In this document: positions 4,718 through 44,037 of the stretch, one piece after another
How the letters are laid out: every line of letters begins with the position of its first letter
Numbering within the stretch: position 1 is the first letter of the stretch
NCBI GenBank assembly: GCA_017550025.1
Contig: JAFYLU010000113.1
Coordinates: 1-44,037 of the forward strand
Length of the DNA stretch: 44,037 nucleotides
From: Bacteroidales bacterium
GTDB lineage: Bacteria; Bacteroidota; Bacteroidia; Bacteroidales; UBA932
Direction: 5' to 3'
The notes under the pieces: generated by a model
Told to the model about the DNA's origin: nothing
The model's input: the letters and a program-made list of their open reading frames with translations, nothing else
Databases searched by the model: none
Translations under genes and position numbers: made by a program

Positions 4718-7700
4718 TAGAGATTATGAAAGCTTCGGCAGGCTCGGGTAAGACCTACAGCCTTGCCAGAAAATATATAAGCCTTCTCCTGGGAAACAGT
4801 GACAGATATGCATACAGGCATATCCTGGCTGTCACATTCACCAACAAGGCTACCGATGAGATGAAGGAGAGAATCCTGAAGGAACTCCATGTGCTTTCCG
4901 TTTCCCCGGAAAAGTCCGGCTATCGTGACTTTTTCGTTCCGTCTGTCTTTCCGTCGGATGCGGAACTTCAGCAGAAGGCGGAGACGGTCCTGCATGACAT
5001 CCTTCATGACTACAGTGCCTTTGCCGTCAGTACCATAGACAGGTTCTTCCAGCAGACGCTCAAGGCCTTTTCGCGAGAGATCGGTCAGTTCGCATCATAT
5101 CAGGTGGAACTCGACAAGGATTCCCTTGTGGCGGAAAGCGTCGACAGGATATTGGATTCGCTTACAGAGGATGACGGAAGTCTTTTGTCCTGGCTCACAG
5201 AGAATGTGCTAGAACAGATCGAGAACGGAGGCCGATACAGCATGGACGCCAATCTACTGGAGATGGCGAGAAGACTTAAGTCTCCGCAGAGGAAGGATGC
5301 TGCGGAAGCTGCCGGAATAGATCCGGATGCGGTATGTTCAAAGGACAAGCTTATGCAGATCAGGAATCTTTGCCGCGAGCTCACAGCTGCCTTCCGCATT
5401 GATGTGAAGGCGAAGGCGAAAAAGGTTCTTGAGGTTCTGGAAAGTGTCGAGGTCAAGCCTGAAGATACCACAAGGGGATTTCTGAAGGCTTTGTACAAAT
5501 ACGAAGAGCTTAAGGATGCAGATCAGGTGGAACCTCCTACTGATGCATTCATGAGGAATGCATCAGACAGTGACAAATGGTTTGCCAAGGCCAAGGCGAA
5601 GACTTTGCTGCCGAAGGTCCTGCATGTGCTTGAAGGGCCTCTGGATGAGTTCTGCGAGCTTTTCGGTAAGGAATATGATGTCTACAACACAGCGTGCATC
5701 CTTGACGGTCAGATATATGGTCTGGGAGTGGCAGGCGAGCTTGAGAGGACATTCAATGAGCTCATGAAGGAGAAGAATGTGCTTTGCATAGATGATTCGA
5801 ACACTATCCTGCGTGATATAATAGATGCTTCTGACGCTCCTTTCGTATATGAGAAAACAGGCGTCAGGTATGATCATTATCTCCTTGATGAATTTCAGGA
5901 TACGGCCCGTGTGCAGTGGCAGAATTTCAGCCCGCTTCTGAAAGAAAGCGAGTCCAAGGGCGGAGATAATCTGATAGTGGGTGATGTGAAGCAGAGTATC
6001 TACAGGTGGAGAGGTTCGGACTGGAAGCTTCTTCAGGATACCATACCGGAGGAGTTTCCCGCTCACAGGCAGGAAGTGCTTGACACCAATTACAGGAGCT
6101 TATCCAATATAGTCGGCTTCAATAATGCCTTCTTCAAGGCTGCGGCCGGTATTCTTGATTCTATGGCAGGGCATGAGGAGGGCAAGGGACCGATGGCCGG
6201 AATCTATTCCGATGTGGAACAGAAGGTAAGCAAGGCTGACAAGGCTCCTGGCAATGTGAGCCTGACTTTCTGCCCTAAAGAAGATGAGCTGCAGAAGGTT
6301 ATGGATGCTGTGATGGAAGTCATGGCCGCCGGAGCGAGACTCTCCGAAATAGCAGTGCTTGTCAGAAGCAATGCAGCAGGAGAAGACGTCGCTTCATACC
6401 TGATAGACAACGGGATAGCTGTCATGACGGATGATTCGCTCAGGGTCAAGGGCTCGATTACGGTGCGCCGTATTGTTTCGCTTATGTCCCTGATGGAGAA
6501 TCCTGCCGATACGGTCGGAAGATATCTTGCCGATTCTATGGACATTTCCGTTCCGCAGAACTGCAATTCTCTGACTGATATGGCTGAAGCCTTGTTCAGA
6601 AGCATTCGCGACAATGATCCGGAGCAGGTGTGGAAAGGCGAGGTCCTGCATGTGCAGTCCTTTTTTGACCACCTTCAGGATTATGTGAATTCGAACGGAA
6701 ACAGCCTTCGCGGATTTCTTAAATACTGGGAGGACGAGAATCCGTCCATATCTTCTCCTTCTTCCGGAGAATGCGTGAGGGTCATGACCATACATAAGTC
6801 CAAAGGACTGGCCTTCCCGTATGTCATAATTCCTTTTGTGGAGAATGTGACCCTCTATAAGCCTGGCAACCATTGGTGCAGTCCGAAGTTCGAAGGAACA
6901 CCTCTGGCTGGCGTAGCCGACGGAGTGTATGATGTGTCGTTGTCAAAATCTTCGATGAGGACTCTCTTTGCTGATGACTACAGGGTTGAGAATTACCTGC
7001 AGCAGGTGGACAATCTGAACATCGTATATGTGGCTATGACGAGACCTGCCCTGGGCATGCATCTGATAGCATCCGTGCCGCCGGAAAAGTGTCTGTCGAC
7101 TCTGGAGTCGGGAGACCTTTCACAGTTTTCTGACTTCTCACAGATCCTGTACTGGTTCGCATCCTCCGGCTCTGCCGAGGGCGTCAGAAGGACTTCGGAT
7201 GATGAGTCTGTTCGCTTTGATGTCGGGGATGTAGTTGATTTTGCCTCTTTCCGTAAGAGTGACATTGCCGGTGTGGAGGATTTTCCTATGGGTGAATATG
7301 GGGAGTATCCTTCCGTTCCTCTGAATCCGTCAGCTGGTGATGAGCAGACTGATGTCCGCGAAAGGGGAAGGCTCAAATATTCTGCGGATTCGATAGATTT
7401 CTTCTCTGAAGACGGTGATGCCGGCATTGCTGCATCGAACAGGATAAAGGGAGTGGTCCTGCATGACATTCTTTCGAGGATATATGTTGTGTCGGATCTT
7501 GAAGGTGCTGTGGGTGAGGCTGTTGCGTGCGGCGATATTACTGAAGGGGAGGCTGCGCAGATACTGGAGCTCCTTGGCGAAAGGCTTGAGACGGCAAGAA
7601 GCAGAGGATGGCTTCCGGAGGGGGAATGGAAGGTTTACAATGAGACATCCATCATAGGTTCTGACGGTCAGATATATCGTCCGGACAGGGTGGTGACCGA

Positions 7701-14860: not shown

Positions 14861-15922
14861 ATGAAGATAATTATCCGCATTTTTTTATACGTTTTGCTGT
14901 TTTTGCCAGCCTTTTCATGTGTTCCCAAAGATCGCTATGTGACGATTACCGGATATGCGCAAGGTGGTACATATACCGTGAAACTGAACCTCAACGGTCA
15001 TGACGGTCATGTCAGTGCGGAACCCGAGGAAATAAGAGATTCCATAGATTCTATCCTTTCCCGTATCGACAAGTCTTTGTCCGGGTATAACAGGAACTCT
15101 CTTCTGAGCCGCTTCAATGCAGGTGAGCCAGTCTCTCCGGACAGCCTTTTCACTGAAATATATTCTCATGCATGGACTGTATATGACGAGACGGCGGGCG
15201 TGGTAGATGTGGCATCAGCGCCCCTGTTCGACATCTGGGGTTTCGGCTTCAAGACCGGTGAAATGCCTACGGAAGAAGCTGTCATGGAGGTGAAGGCCGG
15301 ATGCGGACTCCGAAGGATGAAAAGAAACATGCCGGAGATGGTCAGCGACGGTGTCCTGAATCCTGCTTCGATGCTTTCGGAGGACGGACCTCTGCCGCAG
15401 CTTAATTATAATGCGATTGCGCAAGGCTACAGCTGCGATGTCGTTGCCCGTTATCTTTATTCAATAGGTGTCAAGGACATGATGGTCGATATAGGCGAGA
15501 TCTTCTGTGACGGATGTAATCCTTCCGGCAGACAGTGGACGCTGGGAATTGACCGTCCCGTGGACGGAAATAACGACCCCGGCGCGCAGATGCAGGGAAT
15601 ATTCCGTGCCCCTGCAGGCCCTCATGGCATCGTGACCTCGGGAAACTACCGTAAATTCTATGTCCGTGACGGCAGGAAATATTCCCACTCTATCGACCCG
15701 CGCACCGGCTATCCTGTTGATCATCAGCTTTTAAGCGCAACGATAGTGGCTGCTGATGCGATGACGGCAGATGCGTATGCCACGTATTGCATGGTTATAG
15801 GACTTGACGCGTCGAAGGAGTTTCTGATGTCCCGCCCTGATCTGGAAGGCTGCCTCATTTATGATGAGGACGGTGTCTTCAGGACATGGTGCTCTGACGG
15901 CTTCGTGCTCGAGGAGATCTGA
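14861..15922 (+). CDS. apbE: FAD:protein FMN transferase, lipoprotein form
   Basis: A 353-residue ApbE protein that attaches FMN covalently to Thr/Ser of target flavoproteins such as RnfG and NqrC subunits, outside the cytoplasm. A signal peptide with lipobox PAFSC places it as a lipoprotein with lipidated Cys near residue 20. Family motifs are visible: GGTYTVKL near the N terminus, YNAIAQGYSCD, SGNYRKFYV, HSIDPRTGYP and the metal/flavin motif DAMTADAYAT. The length is normal for the family. No rnf or nqr genes are in the window, so its target lies elsewhere. It converges with comEC, 4 bases apart, with no obvious terminator. Confidence 0.93.
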   Translation: MKIIIRIFLYVLLFLPAFSCVPKDRYVTITGYAQGGTYTVKLNLNGHDGHVSAEPEEIRDSIDSILSRIDKSLSGYNRNSLLSRFNAGEPVSPDSLFTEIYSHAWTVYDETAGVVDVASAPLFDIWGFGFKTGEMPTEEAVMEVKAGCGLRRMKRNMPEMVSDGVLNPASMLSEDGPLPQLNYNAIAQGYSCDVVARYLYSIGVKDMMVDIGEIFCDGCNPSGRQWTLGIDRPVDGNNDPGAQMQGIFRAPAGPHGIVTSGNYRKFYVRDGRKYSHSIDPRTGYPVDHQLLSATIVAADAMTADAYATYCMVIGLDASKEFLMSRPDLEGCLIYDEDGVFRTWCSDGFVLEEI

Positions 15923-15926
15923 TTCC

Positions 15927-17042
15927 CTACATCGTGGCAATGATTTCAAGCGAGCGGACCAGGGCCGTGACAAGAAATTCCACTCCATTCAGCATGAGTT
16001 CCGGACATATGCCTGCCTGATCCAGCAGCAGTGCAATGAGTGCCCCCGGGATGACCAGTCCCGCCAGAGGCAGGGCAATGAGGTTCGTCAGCAGGAAATG
16101 CTTCGGGAATGTATGGAAATAGAGCCATGCCAGAGGAGCTGTTGTCAGCTGGCAAGAAATGGATAAGGCTGTTGAATTCCATATACGTCGGAGAAAGTTC
16201 CATGATGTCCGTTCTGTATCCTCTTCTTCAGGCCATGCCGATCTCATACCTGGATAAATGAATGCTATTCCGGCCATTGCGGCATAGGATAGCTGAAAGC
16301 TTATGCTGCTTGCCGAATGGGGCGATGCAGCAAGCTGTATAACCATTGATATAAGTGTGAGGAAGGGGAGGCTGCAATGTCGGTGAGTCAGTGTGGATGC
16401 TTCTCTTAATGTGATGAATATCAGTGCTCTGACTGTTGACGGACTTGCCCCGGTGGCCAGCGTGTAGAAACCGCATATCAGGAATGTCATGGCCGAACGG
16501 AAGACTGTGGCCTTTCTCGTGTTGCCGGTCACTGACAGAAAATATCTGACGATGGCATATATGATTCCGAGATGAAATCCGGACAGTGCAAGCAGGTGTG
16601 ATGCTCCGCTTTTCCTGAACGCTGCCGTCAGATGTTCAGGCATGCCTGACCTTTCTCCCGTGATAAAGGCTTTGAGCAGAGCGTTTGTGTTCGTGGATGC
16701 GAACTGCAGCCCGTCTATAGCCGCGCCTATCCTTTCCCCGAATCCTGCTGCCGCTGCCGTCAGACCGCATTTCATGTCGCTTGATGATAGGATGATGTCG
16801 TTGAATCCGCATGATATCCCGGTAAGGAATGCGAGGGCAGTCACGAAAATGAAGGCCTTTCTTTGCAGAAGCCTTCTTCCGCTCTCCGTCAGGATGAATA
16901 TAAGTATTGAATAAATGGTTGCAGCTGAAGTGGCCGCAATGTCTGGAATGCCGTCATGCAAGAGGTTTCCTGCATAGATTGCAGTTGTGACCCCTGCGGC
17001 AAAAGGCAGCGCGAATCCCGCCGTTTCTCTCTCCACTGTCAT
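15927..17042 (-). CDS. Compact ComEC/Rec2-family competence channel protein
   Basis: A 371-residue polytopic membrane protein with the ComEC competence domain, the putative inner-membrane channel for single-stranded DNA in natural transformation. The family core GASHLLALSGFHLG is present, followed by several membrane helices. The N terminus has three hydrophobic segments, then passes directly to the core without the usual OB-fold (DUF4131) region, and the C-terminal metallo-beta-lactamase domain is absent. Bacteroidota ComEC proteins are usually much longer. The start chosen is the ATG at 17042, just downstream of a promoter-like box; an in-frame ATG at 17120 would add 26 residues with no family similarity and would overlap the ackA promoter. 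Competence itself is not shown. Confidence 0.78.
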   Translation of the reverse strand: MTVERETAGFALPFAAGVTTAIYAGNLLHDGIPDIAATSAATIYSILIFILTESGRRLLQRKAFIFVTALAFLTGISCGFNDIILSSSDMKCGLTAAAAGFGERIGAAIDGLQFASTNTNALLKAFITGERSGMPEHLTAAFRKSGASHLLALSGFHLGIIYAIVRYFLSVTGNTRKATVFRSAMTFLICGFYTLATGASPSTVRALIFITLREASTLTHRHCSLPFLTLISMVIQLAASPHSASSISFQLSYAAMAGIAFIYPGMRSAWPEEEDTERTSWNFLRRIWNSTALSISCQLTTAPLAWLYFHTFPKHFLLTNLIALPLAGLVIPGALIALLLDQAGICPELMLNGVEFLVTALVRSLEIIATM

Positions 17043-17055
17043 TTCGCACCTGTTT

Positions 17056-17088
17056 TTTGCGAAAGTAGCGATTATTTTTATAACTTTG
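17056..17088 (+). promoter_or_regulatory. Promoter of the ackA-ptb-buk operon
   Basis: TTTG (17056-17059), a 21-base spacer and TAACTTTG (17081-17088) fit the Bacteroidota pattern, 70 bases before the ackA ATG. Confidence 0.65.
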
Positions 17089-17092
17089 CAAA
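17060..17092 (-). promoter_or_regulatory. Possible comEC promoter overlapping the ackA promoter
   Basis: The minus strand has TTTG (17089-17092), a 21-base spacer and TACTTTCG (17060-17067), one mismatch from TAnnTTTG. It would give a leader of only about a dozen bases before the ATG at 17042. It is interleaved with the oppositely directed ackA promoter. Confidence 0.35.
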
Positions 17093-17158
17093 GATGGACC
17101 GGAAATTCTTCCGGATTCATATTGAAAACGGAAAATCAAGAATCAAACAACAGATAAA

Positions 17159-18370
17159 ATGATCATTTTAGTACTCAATTGCGGAAGCTCATCACTTAAG
17201 TATCAGCTCCTTGATATGAAGAATGATGAGGTGTACGATCTTCTCGCCAAAGGTATTGTCGAGAGAATCGGTATGGAAACAGGCTGCCTCAAGCATCAGG
17301 CGACCGGAAAAGAGAAACTTGTAAAGGAAATGCCTATCGAGGACCATACTGTCGGTATCAGGGCGGTGATGGATGCTCTCCTGGACAAGGAGTTCGGAGT
17401 CCTTTCTACACTCGAGGACATCGAGGCTGTAGGACATCGTGTGGTTCATGGTGCAGAAGAGTTCGTTTGCAGCCAGCTCATTACGGATAAGGTTGTCGAG
17501 CAGCTTGAGAAGTGCTCGGTGTTCGCTCCTCTCCATAATCCTGCAAACATCCTCGGAATCAAGGCTGTGTCGGCTGTTCTTCCTACAGTACCGCATGTGG
17601 GTGTGTTTGATACAGCATTCCATCAGACCATGCCTTCATATGCCTATATGTATGCTCTTCCGTATGAGTATTACGAGAAATATGGTATCCGCCGTTATGG
17701 ATTCCACGGAACCAGCCACAGATATGTGTCTGCAAAGGGTGCGAAATTCGCCGGACTGGACATCAATTATTCGAAGATCATCACATGCCACCTCGGAAAC
17801 GGCAGCTCTATCGCTGCAGTGGTAAACGGTAAGTCAATCGATACTACAATGGGTTTCACTCCGCTTGAAGGACTCATCATGGGTACACGATGCGGAAGCA
17901 TTGACCCTGAAATCGTTACATATCTCCAGGAAAAGGAAGGTCTCACTCCTTCTGAAATGAGCAGGATCCTCAACAAGCAGAGCGGTTTCCTCGGTCTTTC
18001 ATGCGTGTCATCAGATGCTCGTGACCTTGACGATGCTGCCAATGAAGGCCATCCGAAGGCAAAGCTTACACTCAAGAAGCTTACATATGAGATCATAAAG
18101 TATATCGGTGCATATACAGCTGCGATGAACGGTGTAGACCTTATCGTGTTTACAGGTGGAATCGGCGAGAACAACAGCAGACTCCGTCGCAGGGTATGCG
18201 AGAACCTTGCTTATCTTGGTGTTAAGTTCGATTACGATGCAAATGTGGTAAGAGGCGTTGATACTATCATCACTCTTCCTGATTCAAAGGTGAAGGTTGC
18301 ACTCATTACAACCAATGAGGAGCTTATGATCGCCCGCGATACAATGAACATCGTTCAGAACGAGGAGTAA
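17159..18370 (+). CDS. ackA: Acetate kinase
   Basis: A 403-residue ASKHA-fold kinase interconverting acetyl phosphate + ADP and acetate + ATP, the ATP-yielding last step of acetate fermentation. Motifs: LVLNCGSSSLKYQL at the N terminus (phosphate-1 loop), VVHGAEEF, VFDTAFHQTMP, GFHGTSHRYVS and TGGIGENNS. The length is standard. The gene has its own promoter and is followed 20 bases later by the phosphate acyltransferase gene. The usual partner Pta is not next to it; the adjacent acyltransferase looks like the butyryl type. Confidence 0.96.
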   Translation: MIILVLNCGSSSLKYQLLDMKNDEVYDLLAKGIVERIGMETGCLKHQATGKEKLVKEMPIEDHTVGIRAVMDALLDKEFGVLSTLEDIEAVGHRVVHGAEEFVCSQLITDKVVEQLEKCSVFAPLHNPANILGIKAVSAVLPTVPHVGVFDTAFHQTMPSYAYMYALPYEYYEKYGIRRYGFHGTSHRYVSAKGAKFAGLDINYSKIITCHLGNGSSIAAVVNGKSIDTTMGFTPLEGLIMGTRCGSIDPEIVTYLQEKEGLTPSEMSRILNKQSGFLGLSCVSSDARDLDDAANEGHPKAKLTLKKLTYEIIKYIGAYTAAMNGVDLIVFTGGIGENNSRLRRRVCENLAYLGVKFDYDANVVRGVDTIITLPDSKVKVALITTNEELMIARDTMNIVQNEE

Positions 18371-18390
18371 TATCAAACAATCAGTCTATT

Positions 18391-19299
18391 ATGTTTACAG
18401 GTTTCGATGAGATATTTGCCGAGCTTCAGAGCAGAGGCGCGAAGAAAAGAATGGTTGCGGCATGGGGCGTGGACAGCCACACCATAGCTGCTGCCGGAAA
18501 GGCTGTCGCACTTGGTCTTGTTGAGGTGACTCTTGTCGGCGATCAGAAGCTGATAGAAGAGGCATGCAGGGAAGAGGGCGTGGACATGTCATGCTTCACT
18601 ATCCTGCATAATCCGGACGAAATTCCGTCTGTTGCTCAGGCAGTGCAGATGGTACGCGAAGGACAGGGCGATTTCCTCATGAAGGGACTTTGCTCTACTG
18701 ACAAGTTCCTCCGTGCCGTGCTTAACAAGGAGACAGGTCTTCTTCCTCCGAAGGGTACTCTTACCCATTGTACGACTTTGGAGATTCCAAGCTACCATAA
18801 GCTTCTTTTTGTAGGAGATGTGGCTGTGATTCCGGCTCCGGACTTCAAGCAGAAGCAGATCATCATGGACTGTCTGGTCAAGACAGCCAAGGCTGTGGGA
18901 GTGGAGAAGCCGAAGGTTGCCATAATTGCTGCAACTGAACAGGTGCTTACAAGCCAGCCGGCTACAGTCGAGGCTGCAATGCTCTCCAAGATGGTTGAGC
19001 GTGGTCAGATCAAGGGCTGCATAGCCGACGGTCCACTTGCACTCGATGTTGCCATAGATAAGGAATCTGTAGAGATCAAGGGCCTTGTCAGCCCGGTTGC
19101 AGGAGATGCAGACTGCCTTCTTTTCCCTAACATAGAATCGGGTAATGTCTTCTATAAGGCAAACTCGAAGCTGGTGCAGGGTGTCAGACAGGCAGGTATT
19201 CTGGTGGGAGCAAAGGTTCCGTGCGTACTTTCGAGCCGTGCGGACAGCATAGATACGAAGCTCAACTCCATTGCCATTGCCGCCATGTCCGCTAAATAA
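18391..19299 (+). CDS. ptb: Phosphate butyryltransferase (PTA/PTB family)
   Basis: A 302-residue phosphotransacylase converting an acyl-CoA (butyryl-CoA or branched-chain acyl-CoA) and phosphate to acyl phosphate and CoA. Its length (about 300) and the absence of any N-terminal DRTGG/AAA domain fit Ptb better than Pta. Segments supporting the family: FLMKGLCSTDKFLRAVLNKE, AAMLSKMVERGQIKGCIADG, GPLALDVAID and ANSKLVQGV. It lies between two acyl-phosphate kinases, acetate kinase (20 bases upstream) and butyrate kinase (41 bases downstream). Acyl-chain specificity cannot be decided from sequence; use by either kinase is possible. Confidence 0.88.
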   Translation: MFTGFDEIFAELQSRGAKKRMVAAWGVDSHTIAAAGKAVALGLVEVTLVGDQKLIEEACREEGVDMSCFTILHNPDEIPSVAQAVQMVREGQGDFLMKGLCSTDKFLRAVLNKETGLLPPKGTLTHCTTLEIPSYHKLLFVGDVAVIPAPDFKQKQIIMDCLVKTAKAVGVEKPKVAIIAATEQVLTSQPATVEAAMLSKMVERGQIKGCIADGPLALDVAIDKESVEIKGLVSPVAGDADCLLFPNIESGNVFYKANSKLVQGVRQAGILVGAKVPCVLSSRADSIDTKLNSIAIAAMSAK

Positions 19300-19340
19300 T
19301 TAGTTGACTACGGATTAATAACGATATAATATTGAAAAAT

Positions 19341-20456
19341 ATGAAAGGTAGAATACTGGTAATCAATACCGGCTCCACCTCGACAAAGATCGCTGTCTAT
19401 GATTCGGGCGAGATGATGTTTGAAAAGAACCTCACTCACTCGGCTGAAGAGATTGCACAATACGAATCCGTGATGGATCAGACGCCTATGCGCCGTGATA
19501 CCATCACGGATTTCCTTTGCGAGAAGGGAGTTGAACTTGAAACTATTGATGTGGCTATGGCCAGAGGCGGACTCATTACTCCTATCAGAACCGGAGTCTA
19601 TGAGGTCAATCAGGAGATGCGTGATGCCTTGATGGCTGCAAAGGAGGGTGCACATGCATGCAACCTCAGCGCTCTGATTGCTGATGATATCGCTGTTATG
19701 GTGAATGAAGCCCGCGCGGCAAAGGGTGTGACTGAAAAATGTCGTGCCTTCATTGCGGACCCTCCTATGGCGGACGAGATGCTTCCGGAGGTGAAGGTGG
19801 GAGGACTTCCTGAATTCCCGAGAAGGACTCTCTTCCATGCGCTGAACTCGCGTGCGATGGTACGAAGGTATGCCCGCAGCGTAGGAAAGACCAATAAGGA
19901 GGTCACAGTGATCGTGGCCCATATGGGTGGAGGCTCGTCTGTGTCCCTTCATAGAAACGGCCTTGTCATAGATACGAATGACGCATTGGGCGGTGACGGC
20001 CCTATTAGTCCGGAAAGAGCCGGTTCTGTTCCTGGATTCCCGCTTGTAGAGATGTGCTTCAGCGGTGAGTATACCAAGGATCAGGTGAAGAAGAAACTTG
20101 TTGGACGTGGCGGAGCTGTATCTTATTTCGGAACCAATGACATCCGTGAGATAATTGCCCGTGCCGAATCGGGTGATGAGGCTTGTGAAACATTCCTCAA
20201 GGGCTTCAGTGTCTCTGTGGCCAAGTATGTCGGTGCTCTTGCAACCGTTGTAGGCGGCAAGGTTGACGCGATCGTGCTTACAGGAGGAATCGCTCACGCG
20301 AAGTCTATTGTCGAAGATATCAGAAGCAGGGTAGAGTTTATCGCTCCTGTTGAGGTATATGCCGGTGAAAATGAACTTGAATCGCTTGCAGAGAACGGAT
20401 ATGGCATCCTTGCAGGTGAGTTTGACATAAAGTACTATCATCCGGACCATTTCTGA
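19341..20456 (+). CDS. buk: Butyrate kinase
   Basis: A 371-residue ASKHA kinase forming butyrate (or a branched-chain acid) and ATP from the acyl phosphate. The N-terminal phosphate loop LVINTGSTSTKIAVYD, the AHMGGGSSVSLH loop and the GGDGPISPERAGSVPG segment typical of Buk are present, as is LTGGIAHAKS near the C terminus. The ATG at 19341 is preferred; a TTG three codons upstream is in frame but adds only Met-Lys-Asn. With ptb it forms the classical ptb-buk pair. In Bacteroidota such pairs may serve branched-chain acid formation from amino acids as well as butyrate; the window does not decide. A terminator overlaps its stop codon. Confidence 0.93.
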   Translation: MKGRILVINTGSTSTKIAVYDSGEMMFEKNLTHSAEEIAQYESVMDQTPMRRDTITDFLCEKGVELETIDVAMARGGLITPIRTGVYEVNQEMRDALMAAKEGAHACNLSALIADDIAVMVNEARAAKGVTEKCRAFIADPPMADEMLPEVKVGGLPEFPRRTLFHALNSRAMVRRYARSVGKTNKEVTVIVAHMGGGSSVSLHRNGLVIDTNDALGGDGPISPERAGSVPGFPLVEMCFSGEYTKDQVKKKLVGRGGAVSYFGTNDIREIIARAESGDEACETFLKGFSVSVAKYVGALATVVGGKVDAIVLTGGIAHAKSIVEDIRSRVEFIAPVEVYAGENELESLAENGYGILAGEFDIKYYHPDHF

Positions 20457-20474
20457 TCCGGATGTTTCCTTTAT
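20439..20474 (+). terminator. Rho-independent terminator of the ackA-ptb-buk operon
   Basis: A perfect 8-bp stem CATCCGGA/TCCGGATG (20439-20446 with 20457-20464) has a 10-base loop and is followed by TTTCCTTTATT. The loop contains the buk stop codon. Confidence 0.8.
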
Positions 20475-21751
20475 TCAAACAGGTTTCTTGCCGGCAGCTT
20501 GTCGCTGTAAAGTTCCCGGCACTGTTTGAAGAGGGCATCAGTATATCTGGCCTGACCAGGGCCTCTCCATGTGCTGGTGTTGGTTATCATTATCCAGCAT
20601 TCGCCGTCAGGGAAATATTTTACGAGGGCAGCCGTGCCGGAAAGTGTTCCGGTGCGGCTCCATCCTTTTTCAGGGGCGGTGTCGTTCCATCCCAATGAGA
20701 ATGTATCCTTGTCGAAATATTCGGTCATCTGTGCTACGGCTTCTGGGGAAATGATATCCTTCACTTCAGGCTTTCCGTCTATCGATGCTACCAGACGCGC
20801 TATTTCGGCAGGTGAGCCGCACCATGCTCCGGCTCCTGAAAGCAGAGGTATGTTGTTTCCTCCGTAGCATCTTTCCACCATTCTTCCGCTGCCTGTGTAT
20901 TCCTCCACGAATTTGCCGTCCCCTTCGTGAGTGTAATATCTCACCTCATTCTCCCTCTTGTCACTGTAGTATGAGCCTCCGATATGCATGTCGAAGCAGC
21001 CGGCCGGATACAGGACATCTTCCCTGATGAATTGTTCATATGGCTTGCCAGATACTTTTTCAATTATTTCAGACAGAAGAAGATAGCCGAAGTTGGAATA
21101 TTTCTGCCATTCGCCTGGCATGAATCGCAGCTGTCTGCCGAGCACAAGACGGTAGAAGTCCTCCTTTACCGGAGGACAGTCAAGCTGCATCTGGTTCATC
21201 ACATCCCTTGATGAGAAAAGAGGATCCCTGTAGAAGCCTCCCTGATGACGCAGAAGATGTTCCACAGTTATCTTTTTGTAGTTCCTGTCTCTGATAACAG
21301 ATGTGAATAAAGTATCGTTCAGGATTCCCGACGGACCGAACACCGTATCCTTTATGCTCAATGAATCCCTGTCCTGAAGGACCATTATGCCCGCTGCTGT
21401 GATAAGCTTGGATACGGATGCCATCCTTAATATATGCGACGGCTCCATCTTTATACCCTTTGCCTCCTCTGCCCAGCCGTAACCTTTCGCATAAAGAAGT
21501 GAGTCGTTGCGCATGATGGCCAGGGATGCGCCCTTGATGTGCCACTGCTGCATATATGTCCTGACCTTTCTGTCAAGACCTTCCAGGCCTTCGATTTCCG
21601 ACATCTTGTTGCTTAATGTGTCGTTCAGGTATATGCGCGGCTTTTCAAGCGGAGCCGGCTTCTGCAAAGGCTTATGAATAATTACAAAAGCTGTCGCGAT
21701 TGCGGCAGCTGCTATTATTGATAATATGATGGTTGTAATGCCTTTCTTCAT
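20471..21751 (-). CDS. Serine hydrolase, class C beta-lactamase fold
   Basis: A 426-residue exported or membrane-anchored protein of the beta-lactamase/transpeptidase-like family (AmpC, D-aminopeptidase, esterase EstB relatives). One N-terminal hydrophobic helix (about 5-25) anchors or exports it. The catalytic SxxK is Ser112-Val-Ser-Lys115 and the YxN motif is Tyr218-Ser-Asn220; a late RTGTLSGT segment stands in the position of the KTG/HTG box. True beta-lactamase activity is not implied; many relatives act on peptidoglycan peptides or esters. It is last in the minus operon, 9 bases after the kinase-like gene, and converges with buk. Confidence 0.87.
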   Translation of the reverse strand: MKKGITTIILSIIAAAAIATAFVIIHKPLQKPAPLEKPRIYLNDTLSNKMSEIEGLEGLDRKVRTYMQQWHIKGASLAIMRNDSLLYAKGYGWAEEAKGIKMEPSHILRMASVSKLITAAGIMVLQDRDSLSIKDTVFGPSGILNDTLFTSVIRDRNYKKITVEHLLRHQGGFYRDPLFSSRDVMNQMQLDCPPVKEDFYRLVLGRQLRFMPGEWQKYSNFGYLLLSEIIEKVSGKPYEQFIREDVLYPAGCFDMHIGGSYYSDKRENEVRYYTHEGDGKFVEEYTGSGRMVERCYGGNNIPLLSGAGAWCGSPAEIARLVASIDGKPEVKDIISPEAVAQMTEYFDKDTFSLGWNDTAPEKGWSRTGTLSGTAALVKYFPDGECWIMITNTSTWRGPGQARYTDALFKQCRELYSDKLPARNLFE

Positions 21752-21760
21752 TTTTCTTTA

Positions 21761-22369
21761 TTATAGTCTTCCTGACTTGCGTGCGAAATCTATGATGAAG
21801 TCAGCTGTGCCTTCGATGCCAAGGATGCTTGAGTCTATGCACAGATCATAAGTGGAGGCAACGCCCCAGTTTCCGAATGTGTAGTAGTTGTAGTATTCAG
21901 CTCTCTTCTTGTCTTTCTCTTCTGCGAGTCTTGTCGCCTCGTCAAGTGATATTCCGGCTCTTTCCGCTATACGGGCCGCCCGGATTTCCAGAGGAGAAGT
22001 GAGGAATACATTCAGCGTGCAATCATTCTCGCGAAGGATGTAGTCGGAACATCTGCCGACTATGACTGCCGGACCTTGTTCGGCAATGTTCATTATCGTG
22101 TGACTCTGCATTTTGAAGAGTCCTCTGTCGCTCATGTAGTTTTCAGTTTCGCTGAATCCGTTCGCAAAGATTGAGGAAAGGGAGAAGAATCTTTTCTTCT
22201 CGTCGCTTTCTTCAAACAGTTCTTTGCTGAACCCGCTGTCCTGTGCTGCCTTCCTGATCAATTCCTTGTCATACACAGGGATTCCGAGCTTCCTTCCCAA
22301 TTCGGCAGCGACGCTGTTACCTCCGCCACCGAACTGTCTTCCTATATTGATGATGATCTTCTTGTCCAT
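21761..22369 (-). CDS. Cytidylate kinase-like family protein
   Basis: A 202-residue P-loop-like protein of the cytidylate-kinase-2 group (PF13189-like). The N terminus has INIGRQFGGGGNSVAAELG followed by KLGIPVYDKELI, the arrangement seen in this family, in which the classical Walker Lys is replaced. The GRCSDYIL and RIAERAGISLDEA segments and a lid-like DKKRAEYYNYYTFGNWG are also typical. The substrate is unknown; canonical CMP kinase activity is doubtful because of the altered P loop. It lies between the MATE exporter (12 bases) and the serine hydrolase (9 bases). Confidence 0.85.
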   Translation of the reverse strand: MDKKIIINIGRQFGGGGNSVAAELGRKLGIPVYDKELIRKAAQDSGFSKELFEESDEKKRFFSLSSIFANGFSETENYMSDRGLFKMQSHTIMNIAEQGPAVIVGRCSDYILRENDCTLNVFLTSPLEIRAARIAERAGISLDEATRLAEEKDKKRAEYYNYYTFGNWGVASTYDLCIDSSILGIEGTADFIIDFARKSGRL

Positions 22370-22381
22370 GTCTGTATGTCT

Positions 22382-23770
22382 TTATAACTGACCTCCGAGA
22401 ATTGTTCCCTCTTCTCCGTCCTTAAGCTTGTTGAATTTCCTGAAAAGCTGTCTCAAGAGTACTGCTGTAAGTAATGCGGACAACAGGTCGGAAACAGGGA
22501 AACTCATCCATACTCCGTTAGCTCCATGCCATATGGGAAGGGTGTACAGAAGCGGAAGCAGGAAAAGGATCTGTCTTGAAAGTGACAGTATGACTGACTT
22601 CCTTACCATGCCGAGACTCTGGAAGAAGTTTGTACCGATCATCTGGAATCCTACGATAGGGAATCCTAAAGTAAGTATCCTCAATCCTTCTGACGACATG
22701 TCCAGGAGAGCTTCATCGTGGGTGAATATTCCGGCTGCGAGTCTTGGTATGAACATTCCGATAGCAAAACATATGCAGGTTACGATCGTAGCATATTTGG
22801 CTGTCATCCAGAATACTTCCCTGACTCTTGAATATTGTCGCGCACCATAGTTGTATCCGGCGATAGGCTGCATGCCCTGGTTGAGGCCCATACATATCAT
22901 TATGAACATGAATATGAACCTGTTGCAGATTCCATAGGAACCGATGCCGAGGTCACCGCTGTAGTCGCGAAGCTGCTGGTTGATGAAGAGTGTCACAAGA
23001 CATGCTGCGGCATTCATGAGGAATGGTCCCATTCCTATGGCCAGCGAGTCCTTTGCCACGCGCATATCGAGCTTGAACAGACCTTTCTCGAAGTGGAAGG
23101 CACGGCTCCTGTCGCTGAAGTGTCTCAAGACCACAATCATTGCTGCTGTCTGTGCAAGGACTGTAGCCCATGCTGCTCCTGCTATTCCCAAGTCAAAGAC
23201 AAAGATGAATATAGGGTCAAGAATCGTGTTGAACACCACTGTGAATATGGTCAGTCCCATGGCTTTCTTCGGACTTCCCGACGACCTCATGGCCGCATTC
23301 AGGCCAAAATACAGATGGGTGACTACATTTCCTATGAGGATGATGCTTATGTATTCCTTTGCATATGGGAGAGTGTTCTCGCTCGCTCCGAAGAAATAGA
23401 GGATCGGGTCTATGAATATCAGGGCTATTGCCATGAATATCAGACCGATGATCACATTGAGACTGACTACATTTCCGAGAACCTTGTTGGCGGCCTTATA
23501 GTTTTTCTGACCAAGAAGGACTGACAGCATTGTTGCGGCTCCTGCTCCCACAAGGGTTCCGAAGGCTGTCGAGAGGTTCATCAGAGGAAATGTGACCGCA
23601 AGTCCTGAAATTGCAAGAGGGCCTACGCCCTGGCCGATGAAGATGCTGTCCACCATGTTGTACAGCGAAGATGCTGTCTGCGCGATGATGGCCGGCAACG
23701 CATACTGCTTAAGGAGCTTGCCGATCTTTTCCGTTCCAAGTTCTAAAGGTATTGCTGACTTTTCTGCCAT
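22382..23770 (-). CDS. MATE family efflux transporter
   Basis: A 462-residue cation-coupled multidrug/toxin exporter of the inner membrane with about 12 hydrophobic helices. Family signs: QTASSLYNMVDSIFIGQGVG near helix 1-2, the internal repeat of that layout after residue 235, and NQGMQPIAGYNYGARQYSRV between helices. The sequence resembles the DinF/NorM-like Bacteroidota MATE group. The ATG at 23770 lies one base after the FKBP stop; an in-frame ATG seven codons upstream lies inside that gene and gives no better family match. The substrate cannot be predicted. Confidence 0.93.
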   Translation of the reverse strand: MAEKSAIPLELGTEKIGKLLKQYALPAIIAQTASSLYNMVDSIFIGQGVGPLAISGLAVTFPLMNLSTAFGTLVGAGAATMLSVLLGQKNYKAANKVLGNVVSLNVIIGLIFMAIALIFIDPILYFFGASENTLPYAKEYISIILIGNVVTHLYFGLNAAMRSSGSPKKAMGLTIFTVVFNTILDPIFIFVFDLGIAGAAWATVLAQTAAMIVVLRHFSDRSRAFHFEKGLFKLDMRVAKDSLAIGMGPFLMNAAACLVTLFINQQLRDYSGDLGIGSYGICNRFIFMFIMICMGLNQGMQPIAGYNYGARQYSRVREVFWMTAKYATIVTCICFAIGMFIPRLAAGIFTHDEALLDMSSEGLRILTLGFPIVGFQMIGTNFFQSLGMVRKSVILSLSRQILFLLPLLYTLPIWHGANGVWMSFPVSDLLSALLTAVLLRQLFRKFNKLKDGEEGTILGGQL

Positions 23771-38584: not shown

Positions 38585-40771
38585 TCATTTATCTTTCCAT
38601 ACCTTGAGATACTGCTGCAGCGCCCACATCTCGTCGCGGTATTTCGCTGCTGCCATGAAGTCAAGGTCCGCTGCTGCCTTCTGCATGTTCTTTTTGGCCT
38701 GCTCGACCGCCTTCTCCACCTGTGGTCTTGTCATCGAACGGATGACAGGGTCCTGAAGCACGGCGGCAAGGTCTGCCTGAAGATAGCCGTCGACATAAGC
38801 GGAATTGCTCTCTCTCTTTGAGTCGTGGCCGAGCCCCACGCTGACTGTGCCTCTTCCAAGGTCTGTAGGGTCAGGAATGTAGGTAGGGTCATCGTACGAA
38901 TTGGCTGCACTGACTCGTCCGTTGACGCTGTTTGCCAGTCTCGGATTTCTCTGCCTGCCGTCCTGTGCCTCTGCTCCTGCCTCCTCGAGAAGAACGTTTT
39001 TCTTGACCGCCACCTGGGTAGGTGTTATGCCGTGCAGCTTGTTGTATTCCATCTGTTTCGTGCGCCTGCGGTCTGTCTCGTAGATGGTCTGCTGCATCGA
39101 GTCCGTAATCGTGTCGGCATACATGATTACCAGTCCGTTTACATTTCTTGCAGCTCGTCCGGCGGTCTGGGTCAGAGCCCTGCCGCTTCGCAGGAATCCT
39201 TCCTTGTCGGCGTCAAGGATCGCGACGAGGGAAACCGTAGGGATATCCAGGCCTTCGCGGAGGAGATTGACTCCGACAAGTACATCAAAGAGTCCGTTCT
39301 TGAAGTCTTCTATTATCTCCACGCGCTCCATCGTGTCCACGTCGGAGTGAATGTAGCGGCATCTGACACCCATCCTGGTGAAATATTTTTCCAGTTCCTC
39401 GGCCATCCTCTTGGTGAGGGTGGTGACGAGGACTCTTTCGTCTCGCTCTGCCCTGACTCTGATTTCCTCGAGAAGGTCATCCACCTGGTTCTCTATAGGA
39501 CGGACCTCGATAGGAGGATCCAGAAGTCCTGTAGGGCGAACGACTTGTTCTACCACAAGACCTTCCGATCTTTCGAGCTCGTAGTCTGCCGGTGTGGCAC
39601 TCACGAATACCTTCTGTCCTGTGATGGCCTCGAACTCATCAAACTTAAGCGGCCTGTTGTCTGCTGCTGCAGGCAGGCGGAAACCATAGTCCACGAGCAC
39701 GGACTTACGAGAGTGGTCACCTCCGTACATTGCCCTGATCTGGGGGAGAGTCACATGGCTCTCGTCTATGAAGGTGATGAAATCCTTCGGGAAATAGTCG
39801 ATAAGACAGAAAGGCCTCATGCCTTCGCTGCGTCCGTCAAAATACCTTGAGTAATTCTCGATGCCGGGACAGTATCCCATCTCCTTGATGAATTCGAGGT
39901 CGTACTCGACCCTCTGCTTCAATCGCTTGGCTTCCAGATGCTTGCCTATTTCGTTGAAATATTCGCACTGCGCCGTCAGGTCATCCTGGATCTGGCTTAT
40001 GGCCTTTATGCTGCGTTCCTTCGTGGTGACGAAGTTTCCTGCAGGGTAGATTGAGATTTCTTCAAGCTCGTCGATGAATGCTCCGCTGACCGGGTCTATG
40101 ACCGAGATCCTTTCTACCTCGTCTCCGAAGAACTCGAGCCTTACCGCGTTTTCACCATAGCCTATGCATATGTCTACAGTGTCGCCTCTGACTCTGAATG
40201 TGCCTCGCTTGAATTCGACCTCCGTTCTCAAATAGAGAGCGTCAACAAGCTGATACAGCAGCCTTGTCATGCTCCTTTGCTCGCCCTGCTTCACATGCAC
40301 GGTCTGCGCGTGGAAATCTGCAGGGTTGCCGATGCCGTACAGACATGAAACACTCGATATCACGATCACGTCGCGGCGTCCCGAGAGCAGGGAAGAGGCT
40401 GCGCTCAGACGCAGTTTCTCGATCTCGTCATTAATGCTCAGGTCTTTTTCAATATATGTATCTGTGACCGGCAGATATGCCTCCGGCTGATAGTAGTCAT
40501 AGTAGGATACGAAATATTCTACTGCGTTGTTCGGGAAGAACGACTTGAATTCACCGTAGAGCTGCGCTGCGAGAGTCTTGTTATGACTCAATATGAGTGC
40601 CGGACGCTGCAGTTTCTCGATGACATTTGCCATGGTGAATGTCTTTCCCGAACCTGTAACTCCAAGAAGGGTCACTGCGTCAACGCCTTCATTCAGCGCT
40701 TCGCAGATACCCTTTATTGCTGCCGGCTGGTCACCTGACGGCTTGTATTCCGAATCTATCTTGAATTTCAT
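38585..40771 (-). CDS. uvrB: UvrABC system protein B
   Basis: A 728-residue DNA-damage helicase of nucleotide excision repair, which receives damage from UvrA and recruits UvrC. Walker [11 protein letters not shown] is at the N terminus, the damage-probing beta hairpin region has [12 protein letters not shown], Walker B is [11 protein letters not shown], and the helicase C-terminal part has [16 protein letters not shown] and [11 protein letters not shown]-terminal UVR motif (about 690-725) for UvrC contact is complete. The linker between contains a Gly/Asn-rich insertion. The ATG at 40771 gives MKFKIDSEY; a GTG ten codons upstream was not used. A TATCTTTG box lies 35 bases upstream. It leads the uvrB-relA-C_GCAxxG operon. 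A diverged copy of its first codons lies at 42923-43027. Confidence 0.97.
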
Positions 40772-40805
40772 ATGTATAGTCCGATCACTTGAGGATTGCA
40801 CTATG

Positions 40806-40813
40806 CAAAGATA
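40806..40813 (-). promoter_or_regulatory. -7 box upstream of uvrB
   Basis: The minus strand reads TATCTTTG, an exact TAnnTTTG match, 35 bases before the uvrB ATG. No -33 TTTG is at the right distance. The 111-base gap 40772-40882 is otherwise AT-rich and empty. Confidence 0.55.
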
Positions 40814-40846
40814 CTGATAAAACGTATAATAATCCGATGAAATGAT

Positions 40847-40854
40847 TATCTTTA
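40847..40854 (+). promoter_or_regulatory. Weak promoter-like box before the fimbrillin-like lipoprotein
   Basis: TATCTTTA differs from TAnnTTTG at the last base and lies 28 bases before the ATG at 40883. It is a weak call made only because of its position. Confidence 0.25.
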
Positions 40855-40882
40855 TTCGAGATTTTAAAACTTGAAATTAATT

Positions 40883-42907
40883 ATGATAAGGGATTGTAAG
40901 CTATTGCTTTTATTATCAATTCTTTTGGCAGTATCATGCGTAGATAAACAGCCACAGGAAATGATTAAAAAGTCTTTCACAGCACAGATGGAAGGATTTG
41001 ATCATCCTGTCAAGACGTCCCTCGGGGGGAAAAATAGTGTAATCTGGTCTACAGGGGACTGTATCAGCATTTTTGAAGGTAGCTCACGAGCCGACCAATA
41101 TCTTGTCTGCGACTATTGTGCCGGATCTCCTAACGGGGAGTTCTATAAGGGCACATCTTCCAATAATGGCTTCTTATCCGGAAATGAATTAAATACGAAT
41201 ATTGCCGTATATCCATATTCCACAGAATATGCATGCTACGGAACAGGTCTGAGCAACGGACATGACACATACATGGTTTCCGGTGTAATCCTGCAGAAAA
41301 ATCAACACTACTCACACAAGTCTTTCCCTGAAGAATCATTTGTGATGATGGCAGTCACAGATGGAACTGATGACAGAAACCTGAAGTTCAAGAATGTATG
41401 TGGTGCGCTGAAATTATCTATAAAAGGAACAGGAGAGATCAAGAGTATTACTTTAAAGGGCAATATGGACGAGCCTATTTCCGGTTATGCGCGCATCAGT
41501 TGCAATTATGGAGGTGTTCCATCATATGAATTCTATGATAATATAAAGACATCCATAACCCTTGACTGTGGTGATGGAGTAGACCTTGATGCGTCTGTAC
41601 CTACAGAGTTCATCTTGACAGTTCCACCGGTAAATTTTCAGAACGGATTTACTGTCATTGTAGAAGATACAACTGGAGATACAGAAGAATTACGCACTTC
41701 TATACCACAAGAAATACTACGATCTACTATTCTTGTGATGCCAGAGATTGAAGTATCACTCTCGAAGCCTGAGGCTATAAATATCTCAGAGGCGCTCAAC
41801 AGCAGTGGTATCGTCACAATATCTGGTGTGGTTAAAGCCATCTCGACAACAGGCCTTATCCTCTCTGACAACACAGCCGATATTTTCGTATATTATGGTA
41901 GTTCATTCAGAGGCAGATTTGTAATCGGCGATGTTTTAAGTATTTCCGGCTATACAGAAATATACAAGAATACTTATAATTTCTATCCTCAGACAACCAG
42001 CTGTGATGCATACACCTCAGTCGAATATGGAGAAGCCAGGATCATAGACGAGGAGTTTGTTGAAATGCAGCAGGCGGCCGAATTCAATAAAAATGTACTG
42101 GATTGCGAATATGTGGAATTTGAGGGATATTTCCTCAGTGGAAATTATCTCAGACTTGACAATTCGAATATGATTATCACACTGAGTAATCTGAACGCCG
42201 ACCTAAATTCGCTGGCATCTCAAATGCAAAGATGCAAAGTCAAAATCAAAGGATATACCTATGCTTTGACCAGCTCCACATATCCAAGCATAATTACTAC
42301 ATCTGTCGAACTCATCGGAAACGAAGAGAGAGATCTGGACATTACATTGGGAGAATATAAGGCATCCTTCACCGGAACGGTGACAGCAACATGTAGCAGA
42401 GGTTATGTGCTTGACAATGGTGAGGACTGCTGGTATGTTTACTGTCGCGGAAATTACCCGGGATATTATAACATCGGAGATATTGTCACATCAACAGGCT
42501 TGATACAAACATTCAGTTACGGAAGAGAGATATTCAATGTATATGATAGTCTTGTCGGATATAATGACACCCTCACCCCTGGCGAACCTGAAATAATCAC
42601 AGCAGAAAAGCTTGATACTTATCTGGCAAGTACAGACGGATTCAAGCCATATAAAGACTACCTCCTACCGACCAGATTAATTCAGGCGACAGGTACACTG
42701 CTGAAGGTAAGCACGGAGCAATATGACCTGCTTATTGAAGGCACTGAAAACAGGTTGACCATATTCAGTCCAGAAGCAAGTACCCTTGAATCTGCGGCAT
42801 CTCTTGTCGGCCAGCAAGTAACTTTGACTGGATATATAATCAAGACAGCAAATGAACATGCTGTCAGTGTCATGCAGACATCACTGGGACTATTCCTTTC
42901 AGAATAA
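40883..42907 (+). CDS. Fimbrillin-like/OB-fold repeat lipoprotein, AT-rich
   Basis: A 674-residue lipoprotein with signal peptide and lipobox LAVSC (Cys near 19). The N-terminal part resembles Bacteroidales fimbrillin-like proteins: KSFTAQMEGFDHPVKTSLGG, then NSVIWSTGDCISIFEG, and a later AVYPYSTEYACYG. From about residue 295 on, up to four OB-fold-like units follow, each with a (V/A)TxxGxV strand, a hydrophobic 'L(I/V)LD' turn and a VGDxxxxxG closing strand (for example GVVKAISTTGLILSDNTADI and TGTVTATCSRGYVLDNGED). The role is unknown; surface adhesion or carbohydrate binding is possible. Codon use and composition are more AT-rich than all neighbours. The ATG at 40883 is used; a TTG four codons earlier is in frame. 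It is flanked by uvrB on one side and a uvrB fragment on the other. Confidence 0.75.
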   Translation: MIRDCKLLLLLSILLAVSCVDKQPQEMIKKSFTAQMEGFDHPVKTSLGGKNSVIWSTGDCISIFEGSSRADQYLVCDYCAGSPNGEFYKGTSSNNGFLSGNELNTNIAVYPYSTEYACYGTGLSNGHDTYMVSGVILQKNQHYSHKSFPEESFVMMAVTDGTDDRNLKFKNVCGALKLSIKGTGEIKSITLKGNMDEPISGYARISCNYGGVPSYEFYDNIKTSITLDCGDGVDLDASVPTEFILTVPPVNFQNGFTVIVEDTTGDTEELRTSIPQEILRSTILVMPEIEVSLSKPEAINISEALNSSGIVTISGVVKAISTTGLILSDNTADIFVYYGSSFRGRFVIGDVLSISGYTEIYKNTYNFYPQTTSCDAYTSVEYGEARIIDEEFVEMQQAAEFNKNVLDCEYVEFEGYFLSGNYLRLDNSNMIITLSNLNADLNSLASQMQRCKVKIKGYTYALTSSTYPSIITTSVELIGNEERDLDITLGEYKASFTGTVTATCSRGYVLDNGEDCWYVYCRGNYPGYYNIGDIVTSTGLIQTFSYGREIFNVYDSLVGYNDTLTPGEPEIITAEKLDTYLASTDGFKPYKDYLLPTRLIQATGTLLKVSTEQYDLLIEGTENRLTIFSPEASTLESAASLVGQQVTLTGYIIKTANEHAVSVMQTSLGLFLSE

Positions 42908-42922
42908 CGTAGAATGACGCGA

Positions 42923-43027
42923 TGTAACAGCATCAACACCCTGATTCGGAGCCTCACATATTCCTTTGATCGCCGCAGGCTGGTCACCTGACGGCCTGTA
43001 TTCCGAATCAATCTTGAATTTCGCCAT
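42923..43027 (-). pseudogene. 5' fragment of a second, diverged uvrB
   Basis: Translating the minus strand from the ATG at 43027 gives a product beginning [17 protein letters not shown] and running to a GVDAVT segment at 42923, after which similarity to UvrB stops and an unrelated tail reaches a TGA at 42899-42901. Compared with the intact uvrB start (40771 downwards), the aligned stretch is ungapped apart from one extra Ala codon, with about 20 base differences but only three substituted residues (K/R, L/P, E/Q). The ATG is one base after the stop of the CotH gene (TGA-C-ATG), so the fragment sits where an intact uvrB would be coupled to CotH. It encodes no Walker A loop and cannot be functional. 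Confidence 0.82.
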
Positions 43028-43028
43028 G

Positions 43029-44037
43029 TCAGTTCATTGCGTTGACGGTCTGTGCCTTCACCTCGAAGAAATTCCTGCTGCCCTTTGTCAGGAGCTTGTA
43101 GTCCTGCAGGTTGCCCCAGCTTGCGGCAGCATCATATATCTCCATATCCTCCCCGGTGTCGTTCGATACATAAGGAGCGATCTTTTCCTGCCATGCCTTT
43201 ATCCTCGCGATGCTTGCGTCTACATGGAACAGACCGTTCTCCTCTGATACAAGTTCCTGGAGTGCATTCTTATATATCTGCCTGAACTCGTCGAACCTCA
43301 TCAGCCTTTCCATAAGAAGTCCGCAGTCTCCCCAGTTGTAAGGGTCCTGACGGCCAGGGTCGTTCATCACGCCGACATTCCAGCTGGTGCCGAGGGTGTT
43401 GTCATAATCATACGGCAGGAAGAAGAATTCATATTTGAGCTTGTCTGTGGTATTGAAATACAGATAGAAATTATTACCGTTGTTCCAATGGTCGTCACAC
43501 ATGCCCACGACCACATTGACCGCATATGTCTTGAGGAGGAATTCAACATCGCACACTTCCTTGATCCATTTGCAGAAGCTTTCCTCTCCCTTGCCCGTAA
43601 GCTTCAGGATGAAGTCTTCGAGCTGTGTCCGTGCAGTCTCAAAATCCTCCTCGTCTCCCTTGAATTCGTAGGTGTAGTTCACGCCGTTGTCAAGGTCGGG
43701 CGACCAGCTTCCGTCTGTTCCGTTGAGGTCCGCAGGCCCTCCGCCTGCATATCCGCATTTCCAGAGAAAGCCTTTGTCGCTGCCGAACATGCCTTCAGTA
43801 CGTCTTTCAATGAATTCGTCGTCGATCGGCTCTATCATTTCGTAAACTCCAAGATAGGCCGGTGTCTCGTCACCGATCTGGAGCCATACGCGGCAATATA
43901 CGTCGAAGGCTCCGGTCCATATCCCATACCTGTGGAACAGGTCATAGCAGTAAAGTTCCCTTACATAGTTCGGGTCGTCCTTGAACCATTTGAGATTGAC
44001 TTTCCTGATGCCGTGTATCGTATGGTCGCTGTCCTTG
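43029..44037 (-). CDS. CotH kinase family protein (5' end beyond window)
   Basis: The last 336 codons of a CotH-type protein; the frame stays open to the window edge at 44037. Recognisable family segments are NLKWFKDDPNYVRELYCYD with FHRYGIWTG, then AYLGVYEMIEPIDDEFIE, GFLWKCGYAGG and the hallmark FFLPYDYDNTLGTSW. CotH proteins have an atypical kinase fold; in Bacillus spores CotH phosphorylates coat proteins, and similar domains occur in many Bacteroidota surface proteins. The N terminus, including any signal peptide, is not visible. An internal Met at 43838 is not the start because the homologous sequence continues upstream of it. The stop codon is one base before a uvrB fragment. Confidence 0.85.
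   Translation of the reverse strand, partial: KDSDHTIHGIRKVNLKWFKDDPNYVRELYCYDLFHRYGIWTGAFDVYCRVWLQIGDETPAYLGVYEMIEPIDDEFIERRTEGMFGSDKGFLWKCGYAGGGPADLNGTDGSWSPDLDNGVNYTYEFKGDEEDFETARTQLEDFILKLTGKGEESFCKWIKEVCDVEFLLKTYAVNVVVGMCDDHWNNGNNFYLYFNTTDKLKYEFFFLPYDYDNTLGTSWNVGVMNDPGRQDPYNWGDCGLLMERLMRFDEFRQIYKNALQELVSEENGLFHVDASIARIKAWQEKIAPYVSNDTGEDMEIYDAAASWGNLQDYKLLTKGSRNFFEVKAQTVNAMN

What the first reader, a model, noticed from the sequence alone, without database searches (positions are those of the whole stretch)
42923..43027. Broken second copy of the uvrB start marks a recombination scar
About 105 bases on the minus strand encode the first UvrB residues ([17 protein letters not shown]... to a GVDAVT segment) and then break off. 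The intact uvrB lies about 2 kb away in the same orientation. By eye the two aligned stretches differ at roughly 20 of about 105 bases but at only three residues, so both descend from functional genes that had diverged like genes of different strains or species. The fragment is separated by a single base from the CotH stop codon. The simplest reading is that an ancestral CotH-uvrB operon was cut, and a segment bearing a foreign uvrB and/or the AT-rich lipoprotein gene was joined in, leaving a stub of the old allele.
Basis: partly seen in the sequence, partly recalled or inferred. Interest (0 to 1): 0.72.

Follow-up and report, generated by a model that had tools for sequence, protein, structure and literature searches.

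The report
Leftover uvrB fragment beside whole gene
A Bacteroidales bacterium carries, beside its whole copy of the DNA-repair gene uvrB, the first 35 codons of a second, clearly different uvrB, most simply a scar left when DNA of two lineages was joined there; unusual at this gene but of an ordinary kind.

Summary
Window 42923-43027 (-) is a 35-codon uvrB start, cut off, one base after the CotH stop; the whole uvrB (38585-40771) begins 2151 bp on. They share 79 of 99 aligned bases (16 silent changes, 3 residues changed, one extra codon), a between-species distance. One changed residue is leucine in 33 of 33 UvrB rows.

The predicted undisturbed layout exists: relative G392 has CotH, 20 bp, whole uvrB, relA and the window's gene order, without the lipoprotein gene. 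No other listed match showed it. None of 32 relatives' uvrB stretches has a second 5' piece, though only 14 hold 2.3 kb or more upstream. A recombination scar is the best reading.

The whole uvrB keeps the upstream region of relatives; its 3' half groups with the species' own clade (85/94), its 5' half elsewhere, not significantly (AU p 0.18). CotH is what clearly disagrees with the species tree (p 2e-8). One homologous and one illegitimate join explain it either way. New member of a known kind, modest interest; misassembly unlikely, not excluded.

The parts
42923..43027 (-). uvrB stub: codons 1-35 of a second, diverged uvrB allele
42899..43027 (-). stub open frame (42 aa) ending in 7 unrelated residues; its stop end overlaps the end of the convergent lipoprotein gene
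42908..42922 (.). junction: 15 bp between the lipoprotein gene's stop and the end of uvrB homology; the longest word of 42891-42960 found elsewhere in the window is 12 bp
40883..42907 (+). lipoprotein gene (674 aa; alternative start 40871); N-terminal module common in the genus, no listed match beyond residue 418; GC 41% against 48% for the window; stands where a divergent GH2 gene stands in some relatives
40772..40882 (-). region upstream of whole uvrB, homologous to the uvrB/GH2 intergenic region of relatives, with TATCTTTG starting 42 bp before the start codon
38585..40771 (-). whole uvrB (728 aa)
43029..44037 (-). CotH kinase-like gene, 3' part; runs off the contig end
36397..38562 (-). 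relA/spoT homologue downstream of uvrB, as in G392 and others; used as reference gene

Best explanation
The stub is a dead relic at a recombination join between two uvrB loci of different lineage. One side is a CotH-uvrB operon of the kind seen in G392, broken after codon 35 of uvrB. The other side has the layout of other relatives: a divergent gene (here the lipoprotein gene), the uvrB upstream region and uvrB. They were joined by one crossover in homologous DNA and one illegitimate join of unrelated ends (uvrB codon 35 to the lipoprotein gene's 3' end), the outcome known as homology-facilitated illegitimate recombination. Direction slightly favoured: the CotH-stub side was resident, and the segment with lipoprotein gene, upstream region and at least the 5' half of uvrB came in, with the crossover inside uvrB. 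Shown: the two alleles, their divergence, the unbroken layout in G392, the kept upstream region. Inferred: the two-join mechanism, the direction, and that the stub does nothing.
For: Stub and whole uvrB differ mostly at silent sites (16 of 20 changes), so both diverged as working genes. G392:C216 reads NifU-like (partial), GH2, CotH, uvrB, relA and then four further genes of the window. The stub's proline stands for a leucine kept in 33 of 33 UvrB rows (own copy included, two rows partial), as expected after loss of function. The whole uvrB retains the upstream region of relatives (z 8.9 for G066 and 7.4 for G298 against shuffles; G392, with CotH there, -1.1). The 3' half of uvrB, relA and an AddA-like helicase place the genome with G169, G392 and G298; the 5' half prefers other branches (RELL support for the clade 0.005 over sites 1-1092). 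Homology-facilitated illegitimate recombination is reported for three naturally competent species and for E. coli conjugation (PMC3240628, start of abstract in the listing).
Against: The AU test does not reject the 5' half of uvrB grouping with its own clade (p 0.18), and control rows show segment discordance too (G187 in two of three thirds, G039 in one). The stub's 99 bases do not resolve its origin (best branch weight 0.38). G392 and G000 share CotH-uvrB adjacency, but G298 and G169, both nearer to G392 than G000 is, lack it, so a vertical history of that layout needs two losses. One metagenome contig without read data carries the join.
Confidence: 0.45

Rival explanations
1. Reverse direction: the whole uvrB with its upstream region and lipoprotein gene is native, and a segment with CotH and the first 35 codons of another lineage's uvrB came in from a donor with a G392-like layout.
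For: CotH of G000 and G392 are sisters (99/95), next to G245 of another clade (99/96), and one clade of the CotH of G000, G392, G298 and G169 is rejected (AU p 2.4e-8). The full-length whole uvrB places with its own clade. By my count it needs fewer events.
Against: The stub does not place with G392 or G298 (lnL 13.4 below the best branch), and it leaves the 5'-half signal of whole uvrB unexplained.
Confidence: 0.35
2. Assembly artefact: the contig wrongly joins CotH-uvrB of one organism to lipoprotein gene-uvrB of another in the same metagenome.
For: The bin is 83.5% complete and 6.4% contaminated, and its contig C92 is identical over 7890 bp to a contig of G021, so a foreign contig is present.
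Against: Stub and whole uvrB share no exact word over 18 bp, and the junction no word over 12 bp with the rest of the window, so a k-mer bridge within the window is lacking; sequences outside the window were not tested. The helicase from the far end of the window lies on the same G392 contig as CotH-uvrB, in the same relative orientation.
Confidence: 0.1
3. Old tandem duplication of uvrB in this lineage, with one copy later truncated.
For: Same orientation, near each other; both copies diverged under constraint.
Against: No second 5' piece in 32 relatives' stretches, 14 of them with at least 2.3 kb upstream. The copies lie in two different upstream settings, each known on its own in relatives.
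Confidence: 0.07

Closest known systems
Homology-facilitated illegitimate recombination (de Vries & Wackernagel 2002 and Meier & Wackernagel 2003, seen as references)
   Same: One homologous anchor and one join of unrelated ends, adding foreign DNA and leaving broken resident sequence.
   Different: There it is measured in the laboratory; here it is inferred from one natural junction, and the homologous crossover is not pinned down.
Displaced effector genes and orphan immunity genes in Vibrio T6SS clusters (PMC5361080, passages seen)
   Same: An incoming segment displaces a resident gene and leaves leftovers; the authors say the mechanism could be akin to the same type of recombination.
   Different: There the leftovers are mainly immunity genes in arrays; here the first 35 codons of a housekeeping gene, probably without function.

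Membership tests
Product of homology-facilitated illegitimate recombination | One junction between unrelated sequences | tested here: met
   uvrB homology stops at 42923, the lipoprotein gene ends at 42907; longest junction word found elsewhere in the window 12 bp
Product of homology-facilitated illegitimate recombination | The other junction by homologous crossover | tested here: inconclusive
   uvrB 5' and 3' halves differ in placement, but AU p 0.18 for the 5' half
Product of homology-facilitated illegitimate recombination | One part of foreign origin | tested here: inconclusive
   CotH discordant with the species tree; which side is foreign is not settled
Tandem duplication | Second copy shared by relatives | tested here: not met
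   No second 5' piece in 32 stretches, of which 14 hold at least 2.3 kb upstream
Integrative element that renews a gene's 5' end | Integrase gene within the insert | tested here: not met
   The lipoprotein gene fills the space between the two uvrB ends and has no Pfam match at 0.001
Integrative element that renews a gene's 5' end | Attachment repeats at the insert's ends | not tested
   no repeat search was run on the insert ends beyond the word comparison

The most novel reading that the evidence does not exclude
The uvrB upstream region is a repeated exchange site in this genus: CotH came between the usual upstream region and uvrB and coupled uvrB to CotH, and later a second segment brought back a uvrB with its own upstream region, leaving the coupled copy as a stub (a promoter rescue of a repair gene by transfer between species).
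Probability: 0.15. Interest if true: 0.4.

Novelty: new member of a known kind. Interest (0 to 1): 0.25.

Why it matters
Stubs of diverged housekeeping genes record single recombination events between species and allow their joins to be placed. Here the predicted undisturbed layout was found in a relative, so the event can be dated and oriented once more genomes are at hand. It changes no general view of the gene or the organism.

Tried and rejected
Placing the stub by likelihood: 99 sites are too few. Reading the bin's second uvrB (contig C92) as the stub's source: it is identical over 7890 bp to G021:C13, so most likely a contaminant contig, and 82-83% identical to the stub. Finding the donor from the region upstream of uvrB: relatives inside and outside the clade score alike (G066 z 8.9, G298 z 7.4). 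Seeing whether G392 keeps the usual upstream region before CotH: the score is at shuffle level (z 0.1), although a TATCTTTGCATA box is there. Finding the lost neighbours upstream of CotH in G000: no close GH2 gene (best-scoring match 32% identical) and no NifU-like gene outside C92, so that stretch seems missing from the bin and its absence says nothing. Looking for the junction in IMG/VR: 0 matches. Sigma-70 and terminator scans: at shuffle level. Integrative element: no integrase. Papers: only; the listings of the last two (10 and 5 rows) showed no such uvrB scar.

Full report
What is there. The window is one whole contig (C1, 44037 bp, no N) of a metagenome bin of 2.62 Mb, 83.5% complete and 6.4% contaminated. 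On its minus strand, one base after the stop of a CotH-like gene that runs off the contig end, lie 105 bases coding the first 35 residues of UvrB; then the homology stops and the frame ends seven residues on, overlapping the end of a convergent lipoprotein gene. The whole uvrB begins 2151 bp further on in the same direction, then relA follows. The two uvrB starts differ at 20 of 99 aligned bases; 16 changes are silent, three residues differ, and the stub has an extra Ala2. One of the three is proline for a leucine found in all 33 UvrB rows examined (own copy included; two rows partial).

Relatives. The nearest named records to the whole UvrB are two Bacteroidales MAGs at 83-84% (the window's own and very near records may be left out there). 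In 400 genomes of the window's genus (375 with a match at E <= 1e-15, match list cut) one genome, G392, matched CotH and the uvrB start in one run. There CotH is followed 20 bp later by a 744-aa UvrB, relA and the next genes in the window's order, with no lipoprotein gene. Searches (355 genus genomes of at least 76% completeness, E <= 1e-130; 222 genomes, E <= 1e-125; 200 genomes, E <= 1e-3) listed no second case. These searches overlap in genomes and score two candidates per genome, so rarer or more distant cases could be missed.

Neighbours of uvrB in relatives. I held the uvrB stretch of 32 genomes or records (30 of the genus, 2 named). Each has one uvrB start in the stretch, but only 14 hold at least 2.3 kb upstream and 10 hold under 0.7 kb. 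The nearest divergent neighbour that I searched for is a GH2 gene in 8 of 32, GH2 beyond CotH in G392, a NifU-like gene in 18; in 5 neither lies upstream in the stretch held (families, run on the G169 proteins). CotH lies elsewhere in the relatives examined other than G392; in several it lies beside a gene that looks like rplI, checked by Pfam only for G245.

History. An AddA-like helicase from the far end of the window gives a clear tree: G000 beside (G169,(G392,G298)), 100/99 (19 of the 20 genomes searched). RelA agrees more weakly (SH-aLRT 85, quick tree of 16 rows, three short rows left out). CotH does not: G000 and G392 are sisters (99/95) next to G245, which the helicase tree puts elsewhere, and one CotH clade for G000, G392, G298 and G169 is rejected (AU p 2.4e-8; 25 rows). 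For uvrB codon trees I dropped three distant rows of 33. The whole uvrB places with its own clade over its full length (59/92) and its 3' half (85/94); its 5' half goes with G271 and G343 (84/36), but the AU test does not exclude its own clade (p 0.18). In likelihood placement, the share of site resamples putting G000 in its clade was 0.005 for sites 1-1092 and 0.60 for 1093-2184. Of five control rows, G169, G392 and G026 had their partner as best branch in all three thirds (RELL 0.32-0.99), G039 in two, G187 in one. The stub fits best on branches outside the clade, fits badly on G392 or G298, and is otherwise unresolved.

The upstream regions. The 111 bp before the whole uvrB are homologous to the region between uvrB and the divergent gene in relatives such as G066 and G298, including a TATNTTTGCA box. 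I recall TAnnTTTG as the Bacteroidetes promoter element; it comes from no call. In this genome the lipoprotein gene stands where GH2 stands in those relatives. Its N-terminal module is common (260 of 400 genomes at E <= 1e-5) and also heads the CotH of G392 and G169; no listed match goes beyond residue 418. In G392 CotH sits between GH2 and uvrB, and the usual region is not found in the 240 bp before uvrB; whether it stands before CotH is unclear (score at shuffle level).

Reading. The locus places side by side two uvrB settings known separately in the genus: CotH-uvrB, cut at codon 35, and upstream region-uvrB with a divergent gene. A single event with one homologous crossover and one illegitimate join would give this. 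The homologous crossover could lie inside uvrB (resident stub; incoming lipoprotein gene, upstream region and uvrB 5' half), or upstream of CotH beyond the contig end (incoming CotH and stub). The first is favoured slightly by the 5'-half signal and by the stub's poor fit to G392; the second by the discordant CotH tree and by event counting. A misassembly is unlikely because no long shared word within the window could have bridged the join, but only reads can exclude it.

Comparison. The same kind of event has been described in naturally competent bacteria and E. coli conjugation (PMC3240628, start of abstract) and suggested for T6SS gene displacement in Vibrio, where leftovers of displaced modules remain (PMC5361080, passages). 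I saw no published case at uvrB; the searches were only.

Noticed in passing
G000 contig C92 (L004), 15000-22889: 100% identical over 7890 bp to contig C13 of genome G021; C92 holds another uvrB and the bin's only NifU-like match, so it is most likely a contaminant contig.
   Followed up: yes
40883-41780: The N-terminal module of the lipoprotein gene has matches in 260 of 400 genus genomes, including at the head of some CotH proteins; no Pfam family matches it at 0.001.
   Followed up: partly
42899-42907: The stub frame and the lipoprotein gene converge and overlap at their ends; the one terminator-like site found in 40600-43100 lies at 42865-42844 (-), a number expected by chance.
   Followed up: no
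L179 (G289) 2358-5802 and L083 4006-6957: In G289 and in one named outgroup record dTDP-sugar-type genes (Pfam) stand upstream of uvrB instead of GH2 or a NifU-like gene, so the upstream setting of uvrB changes in this group.
   Followed up: partly
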